IMG/VR virus record: IMGVR_UViG_3300006923_000014 | Coordinates: 17,516 to 81,515 of that record | Source of the DNA: a virus | Strand: one strand, 5' to 3' | DNA length: 64,000 nucleotides | Part shown: piece by piece, positions 1,327 to 63,550 of the stretch | Layout of the letters: every line of letters begins with the position of its first letter | Numbering within the stretch: position 1 is the stretch's first letter | Translations under genes and position numbers: made by a program | Notes under the pieces: generated by a model | The model's database searches: none | The model's input: the letters and a program-made list of their open reading frames with translations, nothing else | Told to the model about the DNA's origin: nothing

Positions 1327-1965
1327 ATGAAGATCTTTACTCATAGTGCACAAGGACAACGCGCCTATCAAGAAGATAGACTTCTTATTCAAGACTCTCT
1401 TTTAGTTATTGCAGATGGAATGGGTGGCCACCCCAATGGAGATAAGGCTGCTACACATGCTGTAGAATGCCTCTCTGCCGTCGCTTCTGAAGTAGAAGAG
1501 ACCAAGGGTCTCATGAATACTGATGAGCTAACCAGAGGGATTAAGAACGCAAATACGCTATGTATTCAAGCGGGCGACCGACGAGGTTCAACAGTTTCTA
1601 CTGTTTACATTGATAAGGACACTAGTTCTCTTCAAATTGCACATGTAGGTGATACAAGAATTTATCTAATGCGCGGCCCAAATCTTATCTATCGTACAGA
1701 TGATCATGGTTATGGCCATACGCTTACAAATTGTCTTGGCTTTCTTGTCCAAGTAGACACAAAGGTTCTCTCCTATCAGGAAGGAGATATCCTCCTCATG
1801 ACTACAGATGGTATTCATGATGTATTTGATGGAAGTTATCATCTATACTCTGAAATTCAGAAGGCAATTGAACTAGGTTTTAATCCTGCAGAGAAACTAT
1901 GTAGTCTTGCTATTGACGAAAGAGAGTCTAGAGACAATTGCACTGCAATAATATGCCTTCTATAG
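1327..1965 (+). CDS. PP2C-type Ser/Thr protein phosphatase
   Basis: 212 aa, a compact PP2C (PPM) phosphatase, which removes phosphate from Ser/Thr using two Mg/Mn ions. The metal-binding motifs appear in order: QEDR near residue 16, VIADGMGGHPNGD near 27-39, GSTVSTVYI then AHVGDTRIYLM in the middle, TTDGIHD near 160, and RDNCTAIIC at the C-terminus. All key Asp residues are present, so it should be active. It is shorter than bacterial PP2C (about 240 aa), with a reduced flap region. Likely target: host or phage phosphoproteins in the cytoplasm. A tyrosine-type phosphatase is encoded at 26693. Confidence 0.9.
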   Translation: MKIFTHSAQGQRAYQEDRLLIQDSLLVIADGMGGHPNGDKAATHAVECLSAVASEVEETKGLMNTDELTRGIKNANTLCIQAGDRRGSTVSTVYIDKDTSSLQIAHVGDTRIYLMRGPNLIYRTDDHGYGHTLTNCLGFLVQVDTKVLSYQEGDILLMTTDGIHDVFDGSYHLYSEIQKAIELGFNPAEKLCSLAIDERESRDNCTAIICLL

Positions 1966-2267
1966 TAAAAAACATCAAAGTCATCAAATTAGATGAAGCT
2001 ATTCTGTATAAAAATAAGCATAAAATAAAATTACTTTCTTGCCATTTTCTTAGAGCAGGGCGCTATAGAATAGATTTTGGAGAAAAAGGAATAGCCTGGG
2101 CTTGGTGTGATGAAGAAAGACAACTCCATTCTTTAAAAGGGCCTGCTCTAAAAATATTTTATGGATATGAATTACCCCATGAATATTTTTATATTAATGG
2201 TAAGTCTATTTTGAAAGAAGACTGGATAGTAGAAAAACAATATCGAGATCTTATGACCAATGGATGA
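1953..2267 (+). CDS. Family A small protein (GPA type)
   Basis: 104 aa, a clear family A member: FLRAGRYRID, then QLHSLKGPA, then YFYINGKSI, then EKQYRDLMTNG. The LHxLxGPA core resembles the HREDGPA-type repeats of some phage and bacterial proteins, reduced to one copy. The ATG at 1953 is preferred over the TTG at 1938. Function unknown. It overlaps the next gene by 8 bases. Confidence 0.75.
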   Translation: MPSIVKNIKVIKLDEAILYKNKHKIKLLSCHFLRAGRYRIDFGEKGIAWAWCDEERQLHSLKGPALKIFYGYELPHEYFYINGKSILKEDWIVEKQYRDLMTNG

Positions 2268-2583: not shown

Positions 2584-2945
2584 ATACACCACATGTAGTT
2601 CTTGGCACCCACACTGATCCCTTCACCGCTACAGTCTTCCCTTCTTTAGAGGCTGCAACAACTTATATTGAAGGATCTCCATTCAAAAACTGTCTTTCTA
2701 TTCTAGAAGCAGAAATGGGTAGTGAAACAGGAGCACTTTCTAATCCTGGAATCTCTTTTTCAGAAGCTTTTATGAAGGCACTAACTCATGGAGATATGAT
2801 TATGAGAGGAGATTATAAGTATCGGTATCATTCAGATACAAGTACTTGGTATAGATCCGCCGCCACCTCTACTGCTTACGAAGAAGAATATGAACTTACC
2901 GAAGAAGATCGTACACGAACAGACTGGCGGATCTACTCAGAATAA
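2580..2945 (+). CDS. Orphan with C-terminal Tad2/DUF2829-like module
   Basis: 121 aa. Residues about 1-55 are unrecognised. Residues about 57-121 start with a helix (ISFSEAFMKALTHG) followed by a basic turn (MIMRGDYKYRY) and close with T-R-T-D-W-R-I-Y, matching the ending of the tandem DUF2829-like protein at 695 (T-A-T-D-W-E-I-Y). This suggests a third, diverged module of the same family. Function is inferred only. Confidence 0.6.
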   Translation: MNTPHVVLGTHTDPFTATVFPSLEAATTYIEGSPFKNCLSILEAEMGSETGALSNPGISFSEAFMKALTHGDMIMRGDYKYRYHSDTSTWYRSAATSTAYEEEYELTEEDRTRTDWRIYSE

Positions 2946-3189
2946 GCCTTTTAAGATGTTTTATCTTGGTCTTAGAAATACTAAAGAATGGCCTTTATTC
3001 TCTGTACAAGGTACTCTTCTTAGAATTAATGAAAAAAGACGTCTTCATTCTTTAGATGGCCCAGCGCGAAGAGATGTGCGATTGGATGACAAACGAGCAG
3101 ACACTCTTTTTTATGTTATTGAAGAAACATCACTCAACCCAAAACAATGGCGACAAGAAATTTATAAAAGACTTATGTTAAAATCTTAA
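2890..3189 (+). CDS. Family A small protein (GPA type)
   Basis: 99 aa from ATG 2890, which overlaps the preceding gene by 56 bases; the in-frame ATG at 2956 is a possible alternative start. Family marks: RLHSLDGPARR and a C-terminal WRQEIYKRLML. The F-x-G-x-G-x-Y motif is absent. Its 3' end contains the likely promoter of the tmRNA gene. Function unknown. Confidence 0.7.
   Translation: MNLPKKIVHEQTGGSTQNKPFKMFYLGLRNTKEWPLFSVQGTLLRINEKRRLHSLDGPARRDVRLDDKRADTLFYVIEETSLNPKQWRQEIYKRLMLKS
3176..3184 (+). promoter_or_regulatory. Probable extended -10 promoter for the tmRNA
   Basis: TGT followed by TAAAAT lies 9 bases before the first base of the tmRNA acceptor stem, the right place for an extended -10 element. 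A near-identical element (TGTTATACT) precedes the homing endonuclease gene on the other strand. No good -35 is visible. Confidence 0.45.
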
Positions 3190-3696
3190 CTATGGGCCGG
3201 TACTGGCTTCGACTTGGTTATTGGAATAAACAATACAGGTAGTCCTTGTAAGAAAAGACTTTAAAGACTTACATAAAACTAAACGGCAACGATAACGTAG
3301 CTCTCGCTGCATAGCGAGTGGGGTTTCTAACTACCCTATGTCCAAAGTTAGATGTGCACTTGGTCTTAGCAGAGAAATAATAGACTAAAATGGTTACCCT
3401 GTTTTTGGCAGGTGGAATTCACTTTTCCTGGTTCCGAATTGGTTGGAAATAGAACCTAGATGACTTGTTAGTTCAAAGCAACTAAACTAAACTTGTGACA
3501 ATATTGTTTATAAAGAAACTGAGGACATGGGTTCGATTAACAAAATGGTCGCTTCAGTGAGTAATCACTGTCGAATAAGAGAGCTCATACGGTGAACGCT
3601 CAGCATGTAATGATGGTGCCAACGCCGTACGGTGAATCCGAAAGGAGTAAGCCGTCTAGAGACTTATAGGTTCCTAAGACTAAATGTTAAGGAATA

Positions 3697-4104
3697 CTAG
3701 GATGCAAAAAAATCTTCTTCAAAAAGAAGTTTTTTGGCTTTCATTTCATCAGAATATTTTCCATTTCTAGGGGTCACTTCTAGATAAGTTGTGCAAATAA
3801 GTTTAGCTCTTCTTATCTTTGATTTTTCTCTTAAGTAAGGAGATATCTCTAATAAAAAATTAATTGCAGTGCGGTGTTTTAAACGCCAAGACCAAGATTG
3901 TTTGTGATGAGATTTGTAAACCTTTTGTTTTACAATAAATCCTCCAAATTCTTGGACTAAGAAATCAAGAAGTTCTTTACTTGTTGATGTCATAGATACT
4001 GTTGGCGCACGATACTTGTCCCGACTATGAGGGCGGCTTAACGTTACAGTTCCTTCCCCATCAAACAATCCTGCAGTATAAGCCAATTTTAATTCTTTTT
4101 GCAT
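3697..4104 (-). CDS. LAGLIDADG homing endonuclease, antisense in intron
   Basis: 135 aa from ATG 4104, chosen because a Shine-Dalgarno GAGGAG precedes it and the LAGLIDADG helix (YTAGLFDGEGTV) starts 8 residues later. A longer upstream frame exists but lacks a ribosome site. The single LAGLIDADG motif means it should act as a homodimer, cutting intron-less tmRNA genes at the T-loop to spread the intron. It is encoded on the strand opposite to the intron RNA, so it needs its own promoter (see 4130). The gene lies wholly inside the intron. Confidence 0.85.
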   Translation of the reverse strand: MQKELKLAYTAGLFDGEGTVTLSRPHSRDKYRAPTVSMTSTSKELLDFLVQEFGGFIVKQKVYKSHHKQSWSWRLKHRTAINFLLEISPYLREKSKIRRAKLICTTYLEVTPRNGKYSDEMKAKKLLFEEDFFAS

Positions 4105-4129
4105 AATACGCTCTCCTCTTCTTGGATAT

Positions 4130-4138
4130 AGTATAACA
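4130..4138 (-). promoter_or_regulatory. Probable extended -10 promoter of the intron endonuclease
   Basis: On the minus strand TGT-TATACT lies about 25 bases before the endonuclease start codon. This would allow transcription of the antisense gene from within the intron. The -35 region is weak (TTCTTC at 17-base spacing). Confidence 0.45.
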
Positions 4139-4223
4139 TAAACCCTGTCCAAGAAGAAGAAGGAATAGTCCACGCCATAATGAAAATTATGGAATACGTG
4201 TCCCATCCGGTCCACCATATTGA

Positions 4224-4314
4224 GATGCACATATAATCGCTATTTCACACGGCGATGCAGCTAAACCATAGTTGTGCATCCCCGGAGACGCTGGGCTCCG
4301 TATGGTTACCCAGC
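4224..4314 (+). other. Structured RNA element with H-type pseudoknot
   Basis: Between the tmRNA and tRNA-Gly. GATGCAC (4224-4230) pairs with GTGCATC (4274-4280), enclosing a smaller hairpin. Next, CGGAG (4283-4287) pairs with CTCCG (4296-4300), while GCTGGG (4290-4295) pairs with CCCAGC (4309-4314). The interleaved stems have loops of 2, 0 and 8 nt, which is a textbook H-type pseudoknot. It may be a separate small RNA, a processing signal or a decayed gene. No family recognised. Confidence 0.5.
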
Positions 4315-4321
4315 AATTTAT

Positions 4322-58466: not shown

Positions 58467-58682
58467 ATGAATACATATGTAACATATTTCGAAAGCGAAT
58501 CAGGCGATAATTACTTGGTTCAATACAAACGCGAAACACTCCCCGAGTCACCACAAGAATGGCTTAGCGTAATCCAAGAAACTTTAGATGATGAATATTT
58601 TGTTGCCGAACAAGATGATTTTTCAGGCCCCGGAATTATGGGCACTTGGGTTTACCCACAAGAAACAATTGAGATAGTTTAA
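58467..58682 (+). CDS. Small acidic orphan
   Basis: 71 aa, acidic, ends one base into the next gene's start. Not recognised. Confidence 0.62.
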   Translation: MNTYVTYFESESGDNYLVQYKRETLPESPQEWLSVIQETLDDEYFVAEQDDFSGPGIMGTWVYPQETIEIV

Positions 58683-59710
58683 TGAGCACTCTATGGAGAG
58701 ATCCTCTCTTCACATATGATGATCTTTTACTTATTCCACAACATTCTTGTCTTTCAACCAGGAAAGAGGCCATAACTGAAACAGCTATAGGAGATACAAA
58801 ACTTAATTTTCCTATGATTTCAGCTAATATGGATACAGTCACTGGTGTAAGAATGGCTATCGCCATGTGGAAAGCAGGTGGATTAGGAATACTCCATCGT
58901 TTTTATCCTCCAGAGCAAGAGAACCGTAGACTATCCGATGTCCAACAACTAGTTGATAGGGGTGTCCCTAGAGAATATATCTACACTAGTATCGGTGTAG
59001 GTGGAAAAGAAATAGAGTGGGCCGAAAAGTTAGTAGAAGCAGGAGCAGGGGGTCTATGTTTAGATATAGCTCATGCACACTCTGAACTAACTGGATATGT
59101 TCTTAAGCAATTACAGCACCTTAGGCCACATATCACTATTATTGGAGGGAATGTAGCCACACCCGAAGGGGCTATCTTCTTGGCTCCATTGTGTGATGCA
59201 ATTAAGGTCGGGATTGGACCCGGTTCTCGCTGCACAACTCGCTCAGTAACCGGACATGGCGTTCCCCAAGCATATGCCATCCATAGTATTAGACGAACAC
59301 TTCCTAATAAACCAATCATTGCTGATGGTGGACTTAAAACTTCTGGAGATATTGCAAAAGCGCTTGCTCTAGGAGCCACAGCAGTCATGAGCGGCTCTAT
59401 GCTTGCTCCTTCTACAGAAGCAGAAGGAACTCACTATACAGGACAAGACGGAAGAACCTATAAGGTTTATAGAGGCATGGCCTCTAAGCAAGCAATGGAA
59501 AAGGCAGGACGACAACCACGTGCTGCCGAGGGTGTGTCTGCACCCGTGCTTGTCCGGGGAACAGTATCTGAATTAATGTCTGAATGGAAAGATGGCTTAC
59601 AGAGTGCTTTGTCTTATTCTGGTTGCATGAGCATTACAGAATTTAGAGAAGATGCAATTCTTTCTCTAATCACGCCTACAACATTAGTAGAAAATGGAGT
59701 TAGATTATGA
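58682..59710 (+). CDS. GMP reductase / IMP dehydrogenase-like enzyme
   Basis: 342 aa TIM barrel without CBS domains, the length of GMP reductase. Catalytic Cys in KVGIGPGSRCTTRSVTG near residue 184, N-terminal FTYDDLLLIPQHS, flap-like MASKQAMEKAGRQPRAAEGV. IMP dehydrogenase and GMP reductase share this core; the Arg in G-S-R-C and the flap make either possible. It rebalances purine pools, complementing the reductase and thymidylate genes. Confidence 0.88.
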   Translation: MSTLWRDPLFTYDDLLLIPQHSCLSTRKEAITETAIGDTKLNFPMISANMDTVTGVRMAIAMWKAGGLGILHRFYPPEQENRRLSDVQQLVDRGVPREYIYTSIGVGGKEIEWAEKLVEAGAGGLCLDIAHAHSELTGYVLKQLQHLRPHITIIGGNVATPEGAIFLAPLCDAIKVGIGPGSRCTTRSVTGHGVPQAYAIHSIRRTLPNKPIIADGGLKTSGDIAKALALGATAVMSGSMLAPSTEAEGTHYTGQDGRTYKVYRGMASKQAMEKAGRQPRAAEGVSAPVLVRGTVSELMSEWKDGLQSALSYSGCMSITEFREDAILSLITPTTLVENGVRL

Positions 59711-59856
59711 ATAACTACAAAAGAAAGTTTCCGCGTTTAACCTGGGAACAAAAAGAAGCTATTAAAGAATATTTTGCTGACAAAGGCGATGTCATTTCTA
59801 TATTAAAAGCAATACGAAAGAAGAAGGAAACAATTCCAGCTGATGAAACTAAGTAA
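59707..59856 (+). CDS. Small basic protein upstream of primase
   Basis: 49 aa (YKRKFPRLTWEQKEAIKEYF), ATGA overlap with the reductase-type gene and 14-base overlap with the primase-helicase. Helical and basic, possible helix-turn-helix. Not recognised. Confidence 0.6.
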   Translation: MNNYKRKFPRLTWEQKEAIKEYFADKGDVISILKAIRKKKETIPADETK

Positions 59857-62800
59857 AGCTATTACCGAGCTTAAACTCCTCCTCCCTCAATATCTAAAAG
59901 ATCAAGATATTGTCAGTAGTAAATCAAAGAAGTTTGCTTGTATCAACCCACACCATAAAGACTCAACTCCAAGTGCCTCTCTCTATCCTGGAAGTGATTA
60001 CACTGAAGGAAGATGTTTTGGTTGTGTAACTAACTTTGATATTTTTACTGCAGCTCATTGGTTAGAAGGAATGCCTCAAGAAGGGCCCGAATGGGTCTCT
60101 ACTACTGTCTCCACACTATGTGAGAGGTATGATATACCCTTAGAGCTTGAGCCCCTTACAGACGCCCAGAAAGCCTCTAAGGCAGCACTTGCTGCATTTC
60201 AAGAAGCAGCTCGTATTCTTACCACACATACTGTTTGGTCAAAAGATTGTGAAGAGTATATTAATAAAAACAAATGGAAGAAAGAGGTACTTTTACACAG
60301 GGGTGTGGGCTGTCTCTCTAGAGAAATTCTAACTTTAGAAATGTCCAAAAAAGGATACAGCGCAGAGTATCTTAGAACATTAGGTTTGCTTGGTGAGCAT
60401 AATTGTCCTTTCGATGGAGAGCAACTTGTATTTACTGTGTATAACCACCGTGGGCAAGCCCTTGGCTTCTCCTATCGGACATGGGATGGGAAACAAAAGT
60501 ATGTTAACCCACACATGTATGGCTATGGCACAGAGTCTTTAAAGAAAGGGGAGACACTTTATGGGTTGGATAAAGCGCGCCGGTGCACTGACCAACCACT
60601 CATTCTAGTAGAGGGATATACAGATGTCCTAACTCTTAACCATAAAGGAATCAACAATGTTGCTGCCATTTGTGGAACTGCCCTAACTAAGGAACAGATT
60701 CTCCTCTTAGAAAGTGTAGGTTTTCATAGTATTGTTTTGGCTCTTGACTGGGATGCAGCTGGCCAGATAGGAATCAGAAGAGCAATAGACTTGCTTATGA
60801 AAGAAAGTCAAGATCTTGATATTTCTATCATTGGAAAGACCGACAAGACTGAGGGATTAGACCCTTCTGATTTTGTACTCCAACATGGAAAGAAAGGATG
60901 GCTAGCATTACCCAATCTAAGTGCCTTCTCTTGGTTGCTTCAAGATCGTTTGACAGGCCAAACGCCAAAGAGAAAATTAGCCGAAGACATGGTGCGAATT
61001 ATTGCACTTGAATCTTCTGCAATTACAAGAGAAGAATACACTAAGGAATTGGCAAATACAACCGGGGTGTCTATCCATGCTCTTGATATTGAGGTTGGCA
61101 AACAACTCAATAAAAGAGAAAGACAACGCAATAAGATTGAAAAAAACATAATCGAAAGAATGGCTCTGGACTTAGACAAGTTCCCTGACCATCGCATATC
61201 TATCCTTTCTGAAGCAGCTGGCAATATTGAAAAAGTCCGTAATGATTATGAGTCTGGCAAATACTCCTCAAGAGGAGTTCTTTCTTTACTCAGAACACAA
61301 AAGATTAAAGAGGAGTCAATTGACCCCTCTGTTGGCCTTGGATTCAAAATGAATCTAATGCCCCAATTAGCTAAATGCTTTGAAGGAGGAAAGGACTGGG
61401 CGAGTGACACGCTTATGCTTTTGGGTGGAGAAGCCAATGCGGGTAAGTCCTCGCTCATGTCCAATATCGCTTTTGATATTGCGCATTCTAACAAAGATGC
61501 AACCGTTATCTACTTCTCTATTGATGACTCTGGTCGAGACATCTTGCCTAAATTCCTATGTAATGCACATGTCTCTAACTTAGGCAGATTACCCACAAGC
61601 AAATTCGAAGAACTATCTATCGGGGCAATCATTAACCCCGGACGATGGGCCTCTATGCTTCCATCTAAAGGACACAAGGAACGCTTCTTTGACTTTAGGC
61701 AACAGGCTTATAACTTAATAGAAAATCTTGTAAAAGAAGATAGGTTTCTAATTAAGGATGCTACTGATGGAGCTACTCTTGAATACATGGAAGCCGTTAT
61801 TCGCTTTCATAGAGGAAAATACCCAAGTCGTAGAATCTTCTGCGTCTTAGACAATACTCACAACCTTCAAGACTATGGTGGCAAAGACATGAGAGAACGC
61901 TTTAGTAAAATTGCAGATACTATGAACAATATTTGTAACAAATACAGTGTCTGCATGCTGGCCTCTGTTGAGTATAAGAAAAGAAGTGGTGGAATGCGTG
62001 GTGGGAAGTTACTTCCCAAAAATGAAGATATTGCTGAGTGTATGACAGGAGATTCTCTTGTCTTTACAACTCAAGGGCTAAAAAGAATTGATCAAATTAT
62101 CCCTGGCAATATTGTTTACACCAAAGACGAAAACAATCGAATTGTTACCAACAAGGTGTTGGCTAAACTAGACAAAGGCGTTCAGCAAGTTTATAAGGTC
62201 ATGCTTAAAGGTGGACGCACTATTAAAGTTACTGGCAATCACCCATTTTTCACAGAAAAGTATAAATGGAATAAACTTTCAGAATTATCTGTAGGGGATT
62301 TTGTTGCTTTGCCTTCTGAGATTCCTCAACCAAAATCATGCTCTAATCCAATAAATAACGACATTGCTCGTTTACTTGGATACATGGCAGGTGATGGTTG
62401 CTATGCCTTAAAAAGTACTCCTCGTTTTACAAACAGAGATAAGGGCATAATCAAAGATATAAAAACAATAGTACAGGATAGGTTTAAATTAGGAGCTTCT
62501 GAAAGACTCCATAATGGTTCTCTTCATCTTCGTTTTACTAACGGAAGACAAGGATGTAAGGTCAAAAATCCACTAACAGAATATCTAAAAACTTTGGATA
62601 TCTGGGGTCAGACGGGTATGGCAAAAAATATCCCGACTGAACTTTATTCTCAAACCAATGAAGTTATTAGCCATTATATCTCTGGCTTAATTGCCACAGA
62701 CGGCTCAATAGATACAAAGAAGAAAACAATCAGATTCTTTAATAAGAGTAATTATTTAACTCAGGGTTTAATATCTCTTTTAAGTAGACTTGGTATTTAT

Positions 62801-63550
62801 TCCACACTAAATAATGTAAAGAATGGTGTTAATGCTGTTTGTATTTCAGGCGATGAAGCAATTAATCTCGCTCAGCTTTTGTTTATTCCTGGTGCAAAAG
62901 GAAACAAGTGTAAGCAATTGGCTAGTCTTTCCAGACTGAATAAAAACAAACATGATCATTTGCCAATTCTGTTTACTGAGCGCCTTAAAGAAATTACAAC
63001 AAAGGCAAGAATAAATATAAATGACGGAAGAGAGCTAGGGTTTCAAGTAAGAGACGGTCATAGAGTTACAAGATCTATTGGCTCTAAATTAGCAAGCTCC
63101 TTAAAGGACAAAGGATTACAAGCCATACTTAATGAACAGTTAAGGTGGGTGAACATTGTCAAGATTGAAAAACTGGACAAAGAACAAGTCTGGGATTTAA
63201 CAATTGATGGAACTCATAACTTTATTGCCAATAATATTATTGTTCATAACACCAGGGCCTTCAATTACCGAGCTAAGTGGATTGGACACATCTATAATGA
63301 TATGCACGAACGACAGGAAGATTATGATACTTTTCATATCGACCCAATGACGAAGAAACCAATGCCTCGCATCCTTTTACTCCACTCAAAAAATAAGATT
63401 AATGGTTTTAAAGAGATTACTGTTCACGACTTCTTTCCTCACCTTAGTACTTTCAAATGGAAAGATGAAAGTGAGGCCAAACTAGAAGCCAAGAAATATC
63501 TAGAAGACCTTAAAGAAGAGGAAGAATATGATCAAGACGAAAATTGGTAG
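59843..63550 (+). CDS. Primase-helicase with intein
   Basis: 1235 aa precursor, about 831 aa after splicing. Bifunctional replication protein like T7 gp4. Zinc finger near residues 32-60 (CINPHHKDSTPS then CFGC). TOPRIM primase core: LILVEGYTDVLTL, CGTALTKEQ and ALDWDAAGQIG. Helicase: Walker A GGEANAGKSSL near 535, Walker B region FCVLDNTHN and the SVEY motif. An intein splits the helicase at DIAE-TRAFN. C-terminal acidic tail (EEEEYDQDE). Primes and unwinds DNA for DnaE. Confidence 0.93.
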   Translation: MKLSKAITELKLLLPQYLKDQDIVSSKSKKFACINPHHKDSTPSASLYPGSDYTEGRCFGCVTNFDIFTAAHWLEGMPQEGPEWVSTTVSTLCERYDIPLELEPLTDAQKASKAALAAFQEAARILTTHTVWSKDCEEYINKNKWKKEVLLHRGVGCLSREILTLEMSKKGYSAEYLRTLGLLGEHNCPFDGEQLVFTVYNHRGQALGFSYRTWDGKQKYVNPHMYGYGTESLKKGETLYGLDKARRCTDQPLILVEGYTDVLTLNHKGINNVAAICGTALTKEQILLLESVGFHSIVLALDWDAAGQIGIRRAIDLLMKESQDLDISIIGKTDKTEGLDPSDFVLQHGKKGWLALPNLSAFSWLLQDRLTGQTPKRKLAEDMVRIIALESSAITREEYTKELANTTGVSIHALDIEVGKQLNKRERQRNKIEKNIIERMALDLDKFPDHRISILSEAAGNIEKVRNDYESGKYSSRGVLSLLRTQKIKEESIDPSVGLGFKMNLMPQLAKCFEGGKDWASDTLMLLGGEANAGKSSLMSNIAFDIAHSNKDATVIYFSIDDSGRDILPKFLCNAHVSNLGRLPTSKFEELSIGAIINPGRWASMLPSKGHKERFFDFRQQAYNLIENLVKEDRFLIKDATDGATLEYMEAVIRFHRGKYPSRRIFCVLDNTHNLQDYGGKDMRERFSKIADTMNNICNKYSVCMLASVEYKKRSGGMRGGKLLPKNEDIAECMTGDSLVFTTQGLKRIDQIIPGNIVYTKDENNRIVTNKVLAKLDKGVQQVYKVMLKGGRTIKVTGNHPFFTEKYKWNKLSELSVGDFVALPSEIPQPKSCSNPINNDIARLLGYMAGDGCYALKSTPRFTNRDKGIIKDIKTIVQDRFKLGASERLHNGSLHLRFTNGRQGCKVKNPLTEYLKTLDIWGQTGMAKNIPTELYSQTNEVISHYISGLIATDGSIDTKKKTIRFFNKSNYLTQGLISLLSRLGIYSTLNNVKNGVNAVCISGDEAINLAQLLFIPGAKGNKCKQLASLSRLNKNKHDHLPILFTERLKEITTKARININDGRELGFQVRDGHRVTRSIGSKLASSLKDKGLQAILNEQLRWVNIVKIEKLDKEQVWDLTIDGTHNFIANNIIVHNTRAFNYRAKWIGHIYNDMHERQEDYDTFHIDPMTKKPMPRILLLHSKNKINGFKEITVHDFFPHLSTFKWKDESEAKLEAKKYLEDLKEEEEYDQDENW
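62039..63250 (+). mobile_element. Intein in the primase-helicase
   Basis: 404 aa, residues 733-1136. Starts CMTGDSLVFTTQGLKRI, has the TGNHPFF block B, two LAGLIDADG-type blocks (LLGYMAGDGC and ISGLIATDGS) and ends DGTHNFIANNIIVHN with Thr +1. All splicing residues are canonical, so it should splice. DnaB-type helicases often carry inteins near this place. Confidence 0.95.

What the first reader, a model, noticed from the sequence alone, without database searches (positions are those of the whole stretch)
3194..4217. Phage tmRNA gene split in its T-loop by a group I intron
Sequence shows: exon 1 (3194-3537) and exon 2 (4201-4217) form a complete tRNA-like end only when joined; the exon end TTCGAT pairs with guide GTCGAA (3570-3575), placing the required U-G pair at the splice site; the intron ends in G. 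The tag reads GNDNVALAA. Known: tmRNA and T-loop group I introns exist in bacteria. Inference: a phage version would couple ribosome rescue to RNA splicing, which may be sensitive to host state.
Basis: partly seen in the sequence, partly recalled or inferred. Interest (0 to 1): 0.9.

Follow-up and report, generated by a model that had tools for sequence, protein, structure and literature searches.

The report
Phage tmRNA gene interrupted by intron
A bacterial virus carries its own ribosome-rescue RNA (tmRNA) gene, and that gene is cut in two, inside its tRNA-like loop, by what is very probably a self-splicing intron carrying a homing-nuclease gene on the opposite strand; such introns are known in bacterial tmRNA genes but I found no described case in a phage.

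Summary
Exon 1 (3194-3537) and exon 2 (4201-4217) form a complete 361-nt tmRNA only when joined: ARAGORN calls it spliced and finds nothing unspliced. Site 4201 is the only one in the rest of the window that gives 5/5 T-stem pairs, 7/7 acceptor pairs and CCA.

The 663-nt insert has the anatomy of a group I intron: P1 with U.G at the splice site, omega-G, and P3-P9 in canonical order (2 of 2000 shuffles and 0 of 730 other phage segments match). Rfam's general model scores it below threshold (20.8 bits, cut-off 50), so the core rests mainly on my model.

The replicon is a phage, and an identical copy lies in a 151-kb contig. T-loop position 7, LAGLIDADG genes and the P7.1 site are all known for bacterial tmRNA introns (PMC11915505); a phage carrier appears undescribed. 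A second, different phage (G009) has the same arrangement in what looks like a permuted two-piece tmRNA, a combination absent from the published gene forms. Splicing and homing are inferred, not shown.

The parts
3194..3537 (+). tmRNA exon 1: 5' acceptor strand GGGCCGG (3194-3200), D-arm analogue CUGGCUUCGAC, helix P2, tag region, 5' half of the T arm up to T-loop nucleotide 59
   Evidence: RF00023 58.2 bits; ARAGORN on joined exons
3285..3314 (+). tag reading frame GNDNVALAA + UAG
   Evidence: ARAGORN tag positions 92-121 of the spliced RNA
3532..3537 (+). 5' splice-site strand of P1 (UUCGAU; last U is position -1)
   Evidence: 6/6 pairing with 3570-3575 incl. U.G (sequence)
3538..4200 (+). 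group I intron, 663 nt, T-loop position 7, ends in omega-G
   Evidence: junction rules; core descriptor 2/2000 shuffles, 0/730 other segments; RF00028 20.8 bits, sub-threshold
3555..3570 (+). hairpin CAGUGA-GUAA-UCACUG inside the P1 loop, stacked next to the guide
   Evidence: fold z -4.2
3570..3575 (+). internal guide sequence GUCGAA (3' strand of P1)
   Evidence: sequence
3579..3584 (+). P3 5' strand GAGAGC (pairs 4110-4115 GCUCUC)
   Evidence: direct pairing in the sequence; descriptor
3588..3629 (+). P4 UACGGUG/CGCCGUA (3588-3594/3623-3629), J4/5 AA, P5, J5/4 CCAA
   Evidence: helix search; fold (not distinctive by z-score)
3630..3654 (+). P6 (CGGU/GCCG) and P6a UCC-GAAA-GGA
   Evidence: fold z -3.4
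3661..3666 (+). P7 5' strand GACUUA (pairs 4166-4170 UAGUC); alternative GACUA at 3678-3682
   Evidence: helix search
3697..4104 (-). single-motif LAGLIDADG homing endonuclease gene, 135 aa, antisense, in the P7.1 region; AGGAG 8 nt before the ATG
   Evidence: PF14528 31.3 bits, cut-off 22.5; AF2 model pLDDT 81; Foldseek best hits I-CreI, E 1e-6
4110..4115 (+). P3 3' strand GCUCUC
   Evidence: direct pairing in the sequence; descriptor
4117..4157 (+). P8 (12-bp stem)
   Evidence: fold z -5.5; aligned as P8 by RF00028
4166..4170 (+). P7 3' strand UAGUC, preceded by J8/7
   Evidence: RF00028 alignment over J8/7-P7'-P9
4171..4199 (+). P9.0 (ACG/CGU) and P9 CCAUAAU-GAAA-AUUAUGG
   Evidence: fold z -5.4
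4201..4217 (+). tmRNA exon 2: T60, 3' T-stem CCCAU, 3' acceptor CCGGUCC, A73, CCA
   Evidence: unique 5/5 + 7/7 + CCA site; ARAGORN

Best explanation
This is a phage-encoded tmRNA gene with a mobile group I intron at T-loop position 7. The transcript 3194-4217 folds its intron core, guanosine attacks after U3537 (held in P1 by the guide GUCGAA), and exon ligation at 3537/4201 rebuilds the T arm, the acceptor stem with G3-U70 and the CCA end. The spliced RNA can then be charged with alanine and, with host SmpB, tag stalled nascent chains with GNDNVALAA. The antisense LAGLIDADG protein, probably a homodimer like I-CreI, cuts intron-less copies of the tmRNA T-loop site so that repair copies the intron in. 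The intron is therefore mainly a selfish element that keeps the tmRNA usable by splicing out. Shown: the split gene, junction rules, a plausible full core, endonuclease family and predicted fold, phage context. Inferred: splicing, charging, tagging, cleavage and homing.
For: Spliced-only tmRNA call; unique exon 2; P1, U.G and omega-G (sequence); canonical-order core in 2/2000 shuffles and 0/730 other segments; very stable P8, P9 and P6a hairpins; RF00028 3' half at E 0.012-0.031; LAGLIDADG_3, invariant motif residues across 15 aligned phage proteins, I-CreI-like fold. Position 7, LAGLIDADG genes and the P7.1 insertion site are published features of tmRNA introns (PMC11915505). The C. botulinum tmRNA intron is reported as self-splicing (PMC2729099). 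A second phage has the same layout with a homologous antisense endonuclease and an intron scoring 97.3 bits on RF00028.
Against: RF00028 stays below its cut-off and does not recognise the 5' half of the core. The 5' core has alternative pairings: ACGGU/GCCGU could be P4, and there are two P7 5' candidates. The core model was drawn on this sequence before the descriptor was written, so the shuffle test is partly post hoc, and the descriptor misses the second phage's intron. No close homologue gives covariation support. No expression or splicing data.
Confidence: 0.88

Rival explanations
1. A decayed tmRNA gene: the intron or the exons no longer work, and the region survives as a pseudogene kept by the endonuclease.
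For: RF00028 score is low; the phage has no SmpB of its own in the records held.
Against: Every exon element that can be checked is intact: 7/7 acceptor, 5/5 T-stem, CCA, G3-U70, tag and stop, 10-bp P2. The endonuclease frame and motif are intact. No SmpB is expected if the host supplies it.
Confidence: 0.08
2. The insert is a free-standing endonuclease gene that merely landed in the tmRNA gene, without an intron (as the GIY-YIG insertions at permuted tmRNA genes in L141, L142, L145 and L146 seem to be).
For: Such intron-less insertions at the same T-loop do seem to occur. The 5' half of the core is not seen by RF00028.
Against: Those cases have an intact acceptor piece downstream; here no second acceptor copy exists and the 17-nt exon 2 fits only as a splice partner. 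P1, J8/7-P7'-P9 and omega-G are in place.
Confidence: 0.03
3. The intron is kept because splicing regulates phage ribosome rescue (for example through GTP or magnesium levels).
For: The whole tRNA-like end depends on splicing, so a regulatory effect is possible. An extra stable hairpin sits inside the P1 loop.
Against: No riboswitch or regulatory RNA family was detected over its cut-off. An endonuclease gene and the patchy distribution fit selfish spread without regulation.
Confidence: 0.07

Closest known systems
Intron-form bacterial tmRNA genes (883 unique sequences, PMC11915505; first case Clostridium botulinum)
   Same: T-loop position 7, -1 U paired to G, omega-G, some with LAGLIDADG genes in P7.1, intron under 700 bp
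   Different: Carried by a phage; endonuclease antisense (orientation is not stated in that paper's text); tag GNDNVALAA; no phage intron form is named in its main text (supplement not readable here)
Phage tmRNA genes (79 in PMC11915505; e.g. Bxz1-type mycobacteriophages and phage G in PMC4131195; marine methylophage Melnitz in PMC9004378)
   Same: Phage-borne ssrA
   Different: None is described in the text I could read as interrupted by an intron
Group I introns of phages with homing endonucleases (T4 td, cyanophage Pf-WMP3)
   Same: Self-splicing core plus homing endonuclease in a phage gene
   Different: Here the interrupted gene is a structured non-coding RNA, split inside the tRNA-like loop; endonuclease is antisense LAGLIDADG
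Single-motif LAGLIDADG endonucleases (I-CreI, I-MsoI, I-CvuI)
   Same: Motif, length and predicted fold
   Different: About 20% identity; target would be a tmRNA T-loop rather than rDNA
Nuclear rDNA group I introns with antisense endonuclease genes (PMC9548176)
   Same: Antisense endonuclease gene within a group I intron
   Different: His-Cys family, eukaryotic rDNA

Membership tests
tmRNA (ssrA) | tRNA-like end: 7-bp acceptor, T arm, CCA | tested here: met
   only after joining 3537/4201
tmRNA (ssrA) | alanine identity pair G3-U70 | tested here: met
   GGGCCGG/CCGGUCC, read from the sequence
tmRNA (ssrA) | tag frame with stop, ending in Ala-Ala | tested here: met
   GNDNVALAA*
tmRNA (ssrA) | family covariance score over cut-off | tested here: met
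   RF00023 58.2 bits, cut-off 47, from exon 1
tmRNA (ssrA) | works in trans-translation with SmpB | not testable with these tools
   no SmpB in the phage records; host SmpB presumed
intron-form tmRNA | insert at T-loop position 7, between nucleotides 59 and 60 | tested here: met
   TTCGAT|T; site definition from PMC11915505
intron-form tmRNA | -1 U paired to G in P1 and omega-G | tested here: met
   U3537.G3570, G4200
intron-form tmRNA | match to the published tmRNA_intron covariance model | not testable with these tools
   model is in a supplement that was not available
group I intron | P3-P4-P5-P6-P7-P8-P9 in canonical order | tested here: met
   (2/2000 shuffles, 0/730 segments); 5' core pairing not unique
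group I intron | recognised by the general RF00028 model | tested here: inconclusive
   20.8 bits, cut-off 50; 3' half matched, 5' half not; a 400-nt gene interrupts the core
group I intron | guanosine-dependent self-splicing | not testable with these tools
   needs bench assay
LAGLIDADG homing endonuclease | LAGLIDADG motif with catalytic acid | tested here: met
   PF14528 above cut-off; AGLFDGEG, invariant D and E
LAGLIDADG homing endonuclease | LAGLIDADG fold | tested here: met
   AF2 pLDDT 81, I-CreI top hits
LAGLIDADG homing endonuclease | cuts the intron-less allele | not testable with these tools
   needs bench assay

The most novel reading that the evidence does not exclude
The T-loop of phage tmRNA genes is a recurrent landing site for several kinds of mobile nuclease element: group I introns with antisense LAGLIDADG genes in one-piece and in permuted two-piece tmRNA genes, and intron-less GIY-YIG genes that bring a replacement acceptor piece. 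In the intron cases the phage's rescue RNA exists only after splicing, while the encoded nuclease can cut uninterrupted tmRNA genes of the host or of rival phages, making the phage tmRNA a protected copy. A permuted-plus-intron tmRNA gene would itself be a new gene form.
Probability: 0.3. Interest if true: 0.75.

Novelty: new variant of a known kind. Interest (0 to 1): 0.52.

Why it matters
tmRNA introns are known from bacterial chromosomes, and phages are an obvious possible vehicle for their spread between phyla; an intron-bearing phage tmRNA supplies a candidate vehicle and a testable homing donor. It also makes a phage's ribosome-rescue RNA depend on splicing, which can be tested by removing the intron. 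Standard annotation misses such genes: ARAGORN found nothing in the unspliced sequence.

Tried and rejected
Blastn of the locus against 50,697 phage records listed only the neighbouring tRNA-Gly among the best places. A relaxed T-loop/guide scan gave only chance matches apart from L140 and L141, already found. The strict T-loop/guide pattern in 84,980 bacterial and archaeal genomes gave 13 matches, none a tmRNA; so the bacterial introns use other guide or stem letters and no close bacterial relative was found. RF00028 in about 795 genomes of two phyla gave group I introns, none placed in a tmRNA by my exon filter; those I read through looked like tRNA anticodon-loop introns or were not near a tmRNA. 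Eighty phage relatives of the endonuclease: apart from this phage's own copy, none in a split tRNA or tmRNA by my filter. An earlier core model with P4 as GAUGGU/GCCGUC or ACGGU/GCCGU was dropped because no consistent P3 and J3/4 could be found. A terminator/promoter scan was uninformative. The phage's host could not be identified: polymerase relatives are 32-35% and RNR relatives about 40% identical, to gut and Bacteroides phages.

Full report
Observation. Exon 1 (3194-3537) is recognised as tmRNA by Rfam (58.2 bits, cut-off 47), but the match collapses at the T arm. Joining 3537 to 4201 gives a complete 361-nt tmRNA in ARAGORN with tag GNDNVALAA; the unjoined sequence gives none. ARAGORN accepts several neighbouring joins, so the exact junction rests on the group I rules: U3537 pairs with G3570 in P1 and G4200 is omega-G. 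Among all sites preceded by G in the rest of the window only 4201 gives 5/5 T-stem, 7/7 acceptor and CCA. Splicing also creates the G3-U70 pair that alanyl-tRNA synthetase reads (established knowledge). The same sequence is 100% identical over 8,104 bp in a second contig of 151,482 bp.

The intron. The insert is 663 nt at T-loop position 7, the main site of the 883 published tmRNA introns (PMC11915505). A full core can be drawn: P1 UUCGAU/GUCGAA, P3 GAGAGC/GCUCUC, P4 UACGGUG/CGCCGUA, J4/5 AA, J5/4 CCAA, P6 with a GAAA-capped P6a, P7 GACU(U)A/UAGUC, P8 of 12 bp, P9.0 and a GAAA-capped P9. A descriptor demanding this order was met by 2 of 2000 dinucleotide shuffles and 0 of 730 other segments of the same phage. 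This test is partly post hoc and the descriptor misses another good group I intron, so it supports rather than proves. The general Rfam model gives 20.8 bits (cut-off 50) over 4052-4192; its J8/7-P7'-P9 alignment agrees with my model, but its 5' part is placed wrongly and the 5' half alone scores nothing. The 408-nt gene within the core is one likely reason.

The endonuclease. On the opposite strand, 4104-3697, lies a 135-aa LAGLIDADG protein (PF14528 31.3 bits). Its motif residues are invariant across 15 aligned phage proteins, and its AlphaFold2 model (pLDDT 81) matches I-CreI and related homodimeric homing endonucleases (E 1e-6, TM about 0.6). It sits between P7 and P3', the P7.1 region, where 19 of the 23 endonuclease genes of the founding set of published tmRNA introns lie.

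The carrier. The window is part of an IMG/VR record of 81,515 bases. It encodes a Pol III-type polymerase, primase-helicase, UvsX, PhoH, a B12-dependent-type RNR and thymidylate synthase. The longer copy encodes tail, lysis and virion proteins and at least eight tRNAs. No SmpB was found in any of three records, so host SmpB is presumed.

A second phage. In contig IMGVR_UViG_3300007535_000003 (G009, 97,237 bp; tail-fibre and primase families), GGAC-UCGGG-UUCGAU is followed by a 621-nt insert whose core scores 97.3 bits on RF00028, ending in G before UCCCGA-AGGCUCC. The insert carries an antisense LAGLIDADG gene homologous to the window's (32% identity, E 1e-15). The matching 5' acceptor strand GGGGCCU, again giving G3-U70, lies 293 nt downstream, followed by AAUUGGUUUUGAC, a frame GESEMMQLLRAAA* and a strong terminator-like hairpin; the helix CCCAGUUAGCA/UGCUAGCUAGGG would join the two pieces. 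This is best read as a permuted tmRNA gene with a T-loop intron, although ARAGORN does not call it after splicing. Table 3 of PMC11915505 lists no such combined form.

Mechanism. Most likely the intron is a selfish element that splices itself out of the phage tmRNA and spreads through its endonuclease; the spliced RNA works with host SmpB. Splicing and homing are inferred. Regulation of rescue by splicing is possible but unsupported.

Novelty. Each ingredient is known separately. A phage carrier of an intron-form tmRNA is not described in any text I could read; the database supplement could not be opened, so an unremarked entry there remains possible. I rate it a new variant of a known kind.

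Noticed in passing
L170 (G009), 1617-2660: Second phage with a T-loop group I intron and antisense LAGLIDADG gene, in an apparently permuted two-piece tmRNA gene followed by a terminator-like hairpin; a gene form not listed in PMC11915505.
   Followed up: partly
L142 (- strand), L145, L141, L146: GIY-YIG genes of 210-213 aa sit directly upstream of permuted tmRNA genes, preceded by a truncated acceptor-piece copy that ends at the T-loop and is 82-84% identical to the intact one over 50-55 nt (L145, L141); ARAGORN calls the downstream permuted tmRNA in L142 and L145. Looks like insertion at the T-loop that regenerates the acceptor piece.
   Followed up: partly
window 59843-63550: Primase-helicase interrupted by an intein domain with its own LAGLIDADG endonuclease (Pfam Intein_splicing, LAGLIDADG_3).
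   Followed up: no
window 1938-2267, 2260-2583, 2890-3189: Three neighbouring small proteins share a motif like LHSLKGPA just upstream of the tmRNA gene; probable paralogues of unknown function.
   Followed up: no
window 3706-3735: Hairpin with T runs on both strands lies inside the last codons of the endonuclease gene. If it ended the antisense transcript, the mRNA would lack a stop codon and be a tmRNA substrate; stem is weak and not called as a terminator.
   Followed up: no
window 4219-4321: Short spacer between exon 2 and tRNA-Gly contains two inverted repeats (GATGCAC/GTGCATC, GCTGGG/CCCAGC) of unknown role.
   Followed up: no
window 1327-1965: PP2C-type protein phosphatase gene in the phage, about 1.2 kb upstream of the tmRNA gene.
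   Followed up: no
window 58682-59710: Phage-encoded IMP dehydrogenase/GMP reductase-family gene next to the primase gene.
   Followed up: no
L335 2536-5793: Phage contig with a GOLLD RNA (199.7 bits) embedded in a tRNA array next to a LAGLIDADG gene.
   Followed up: no
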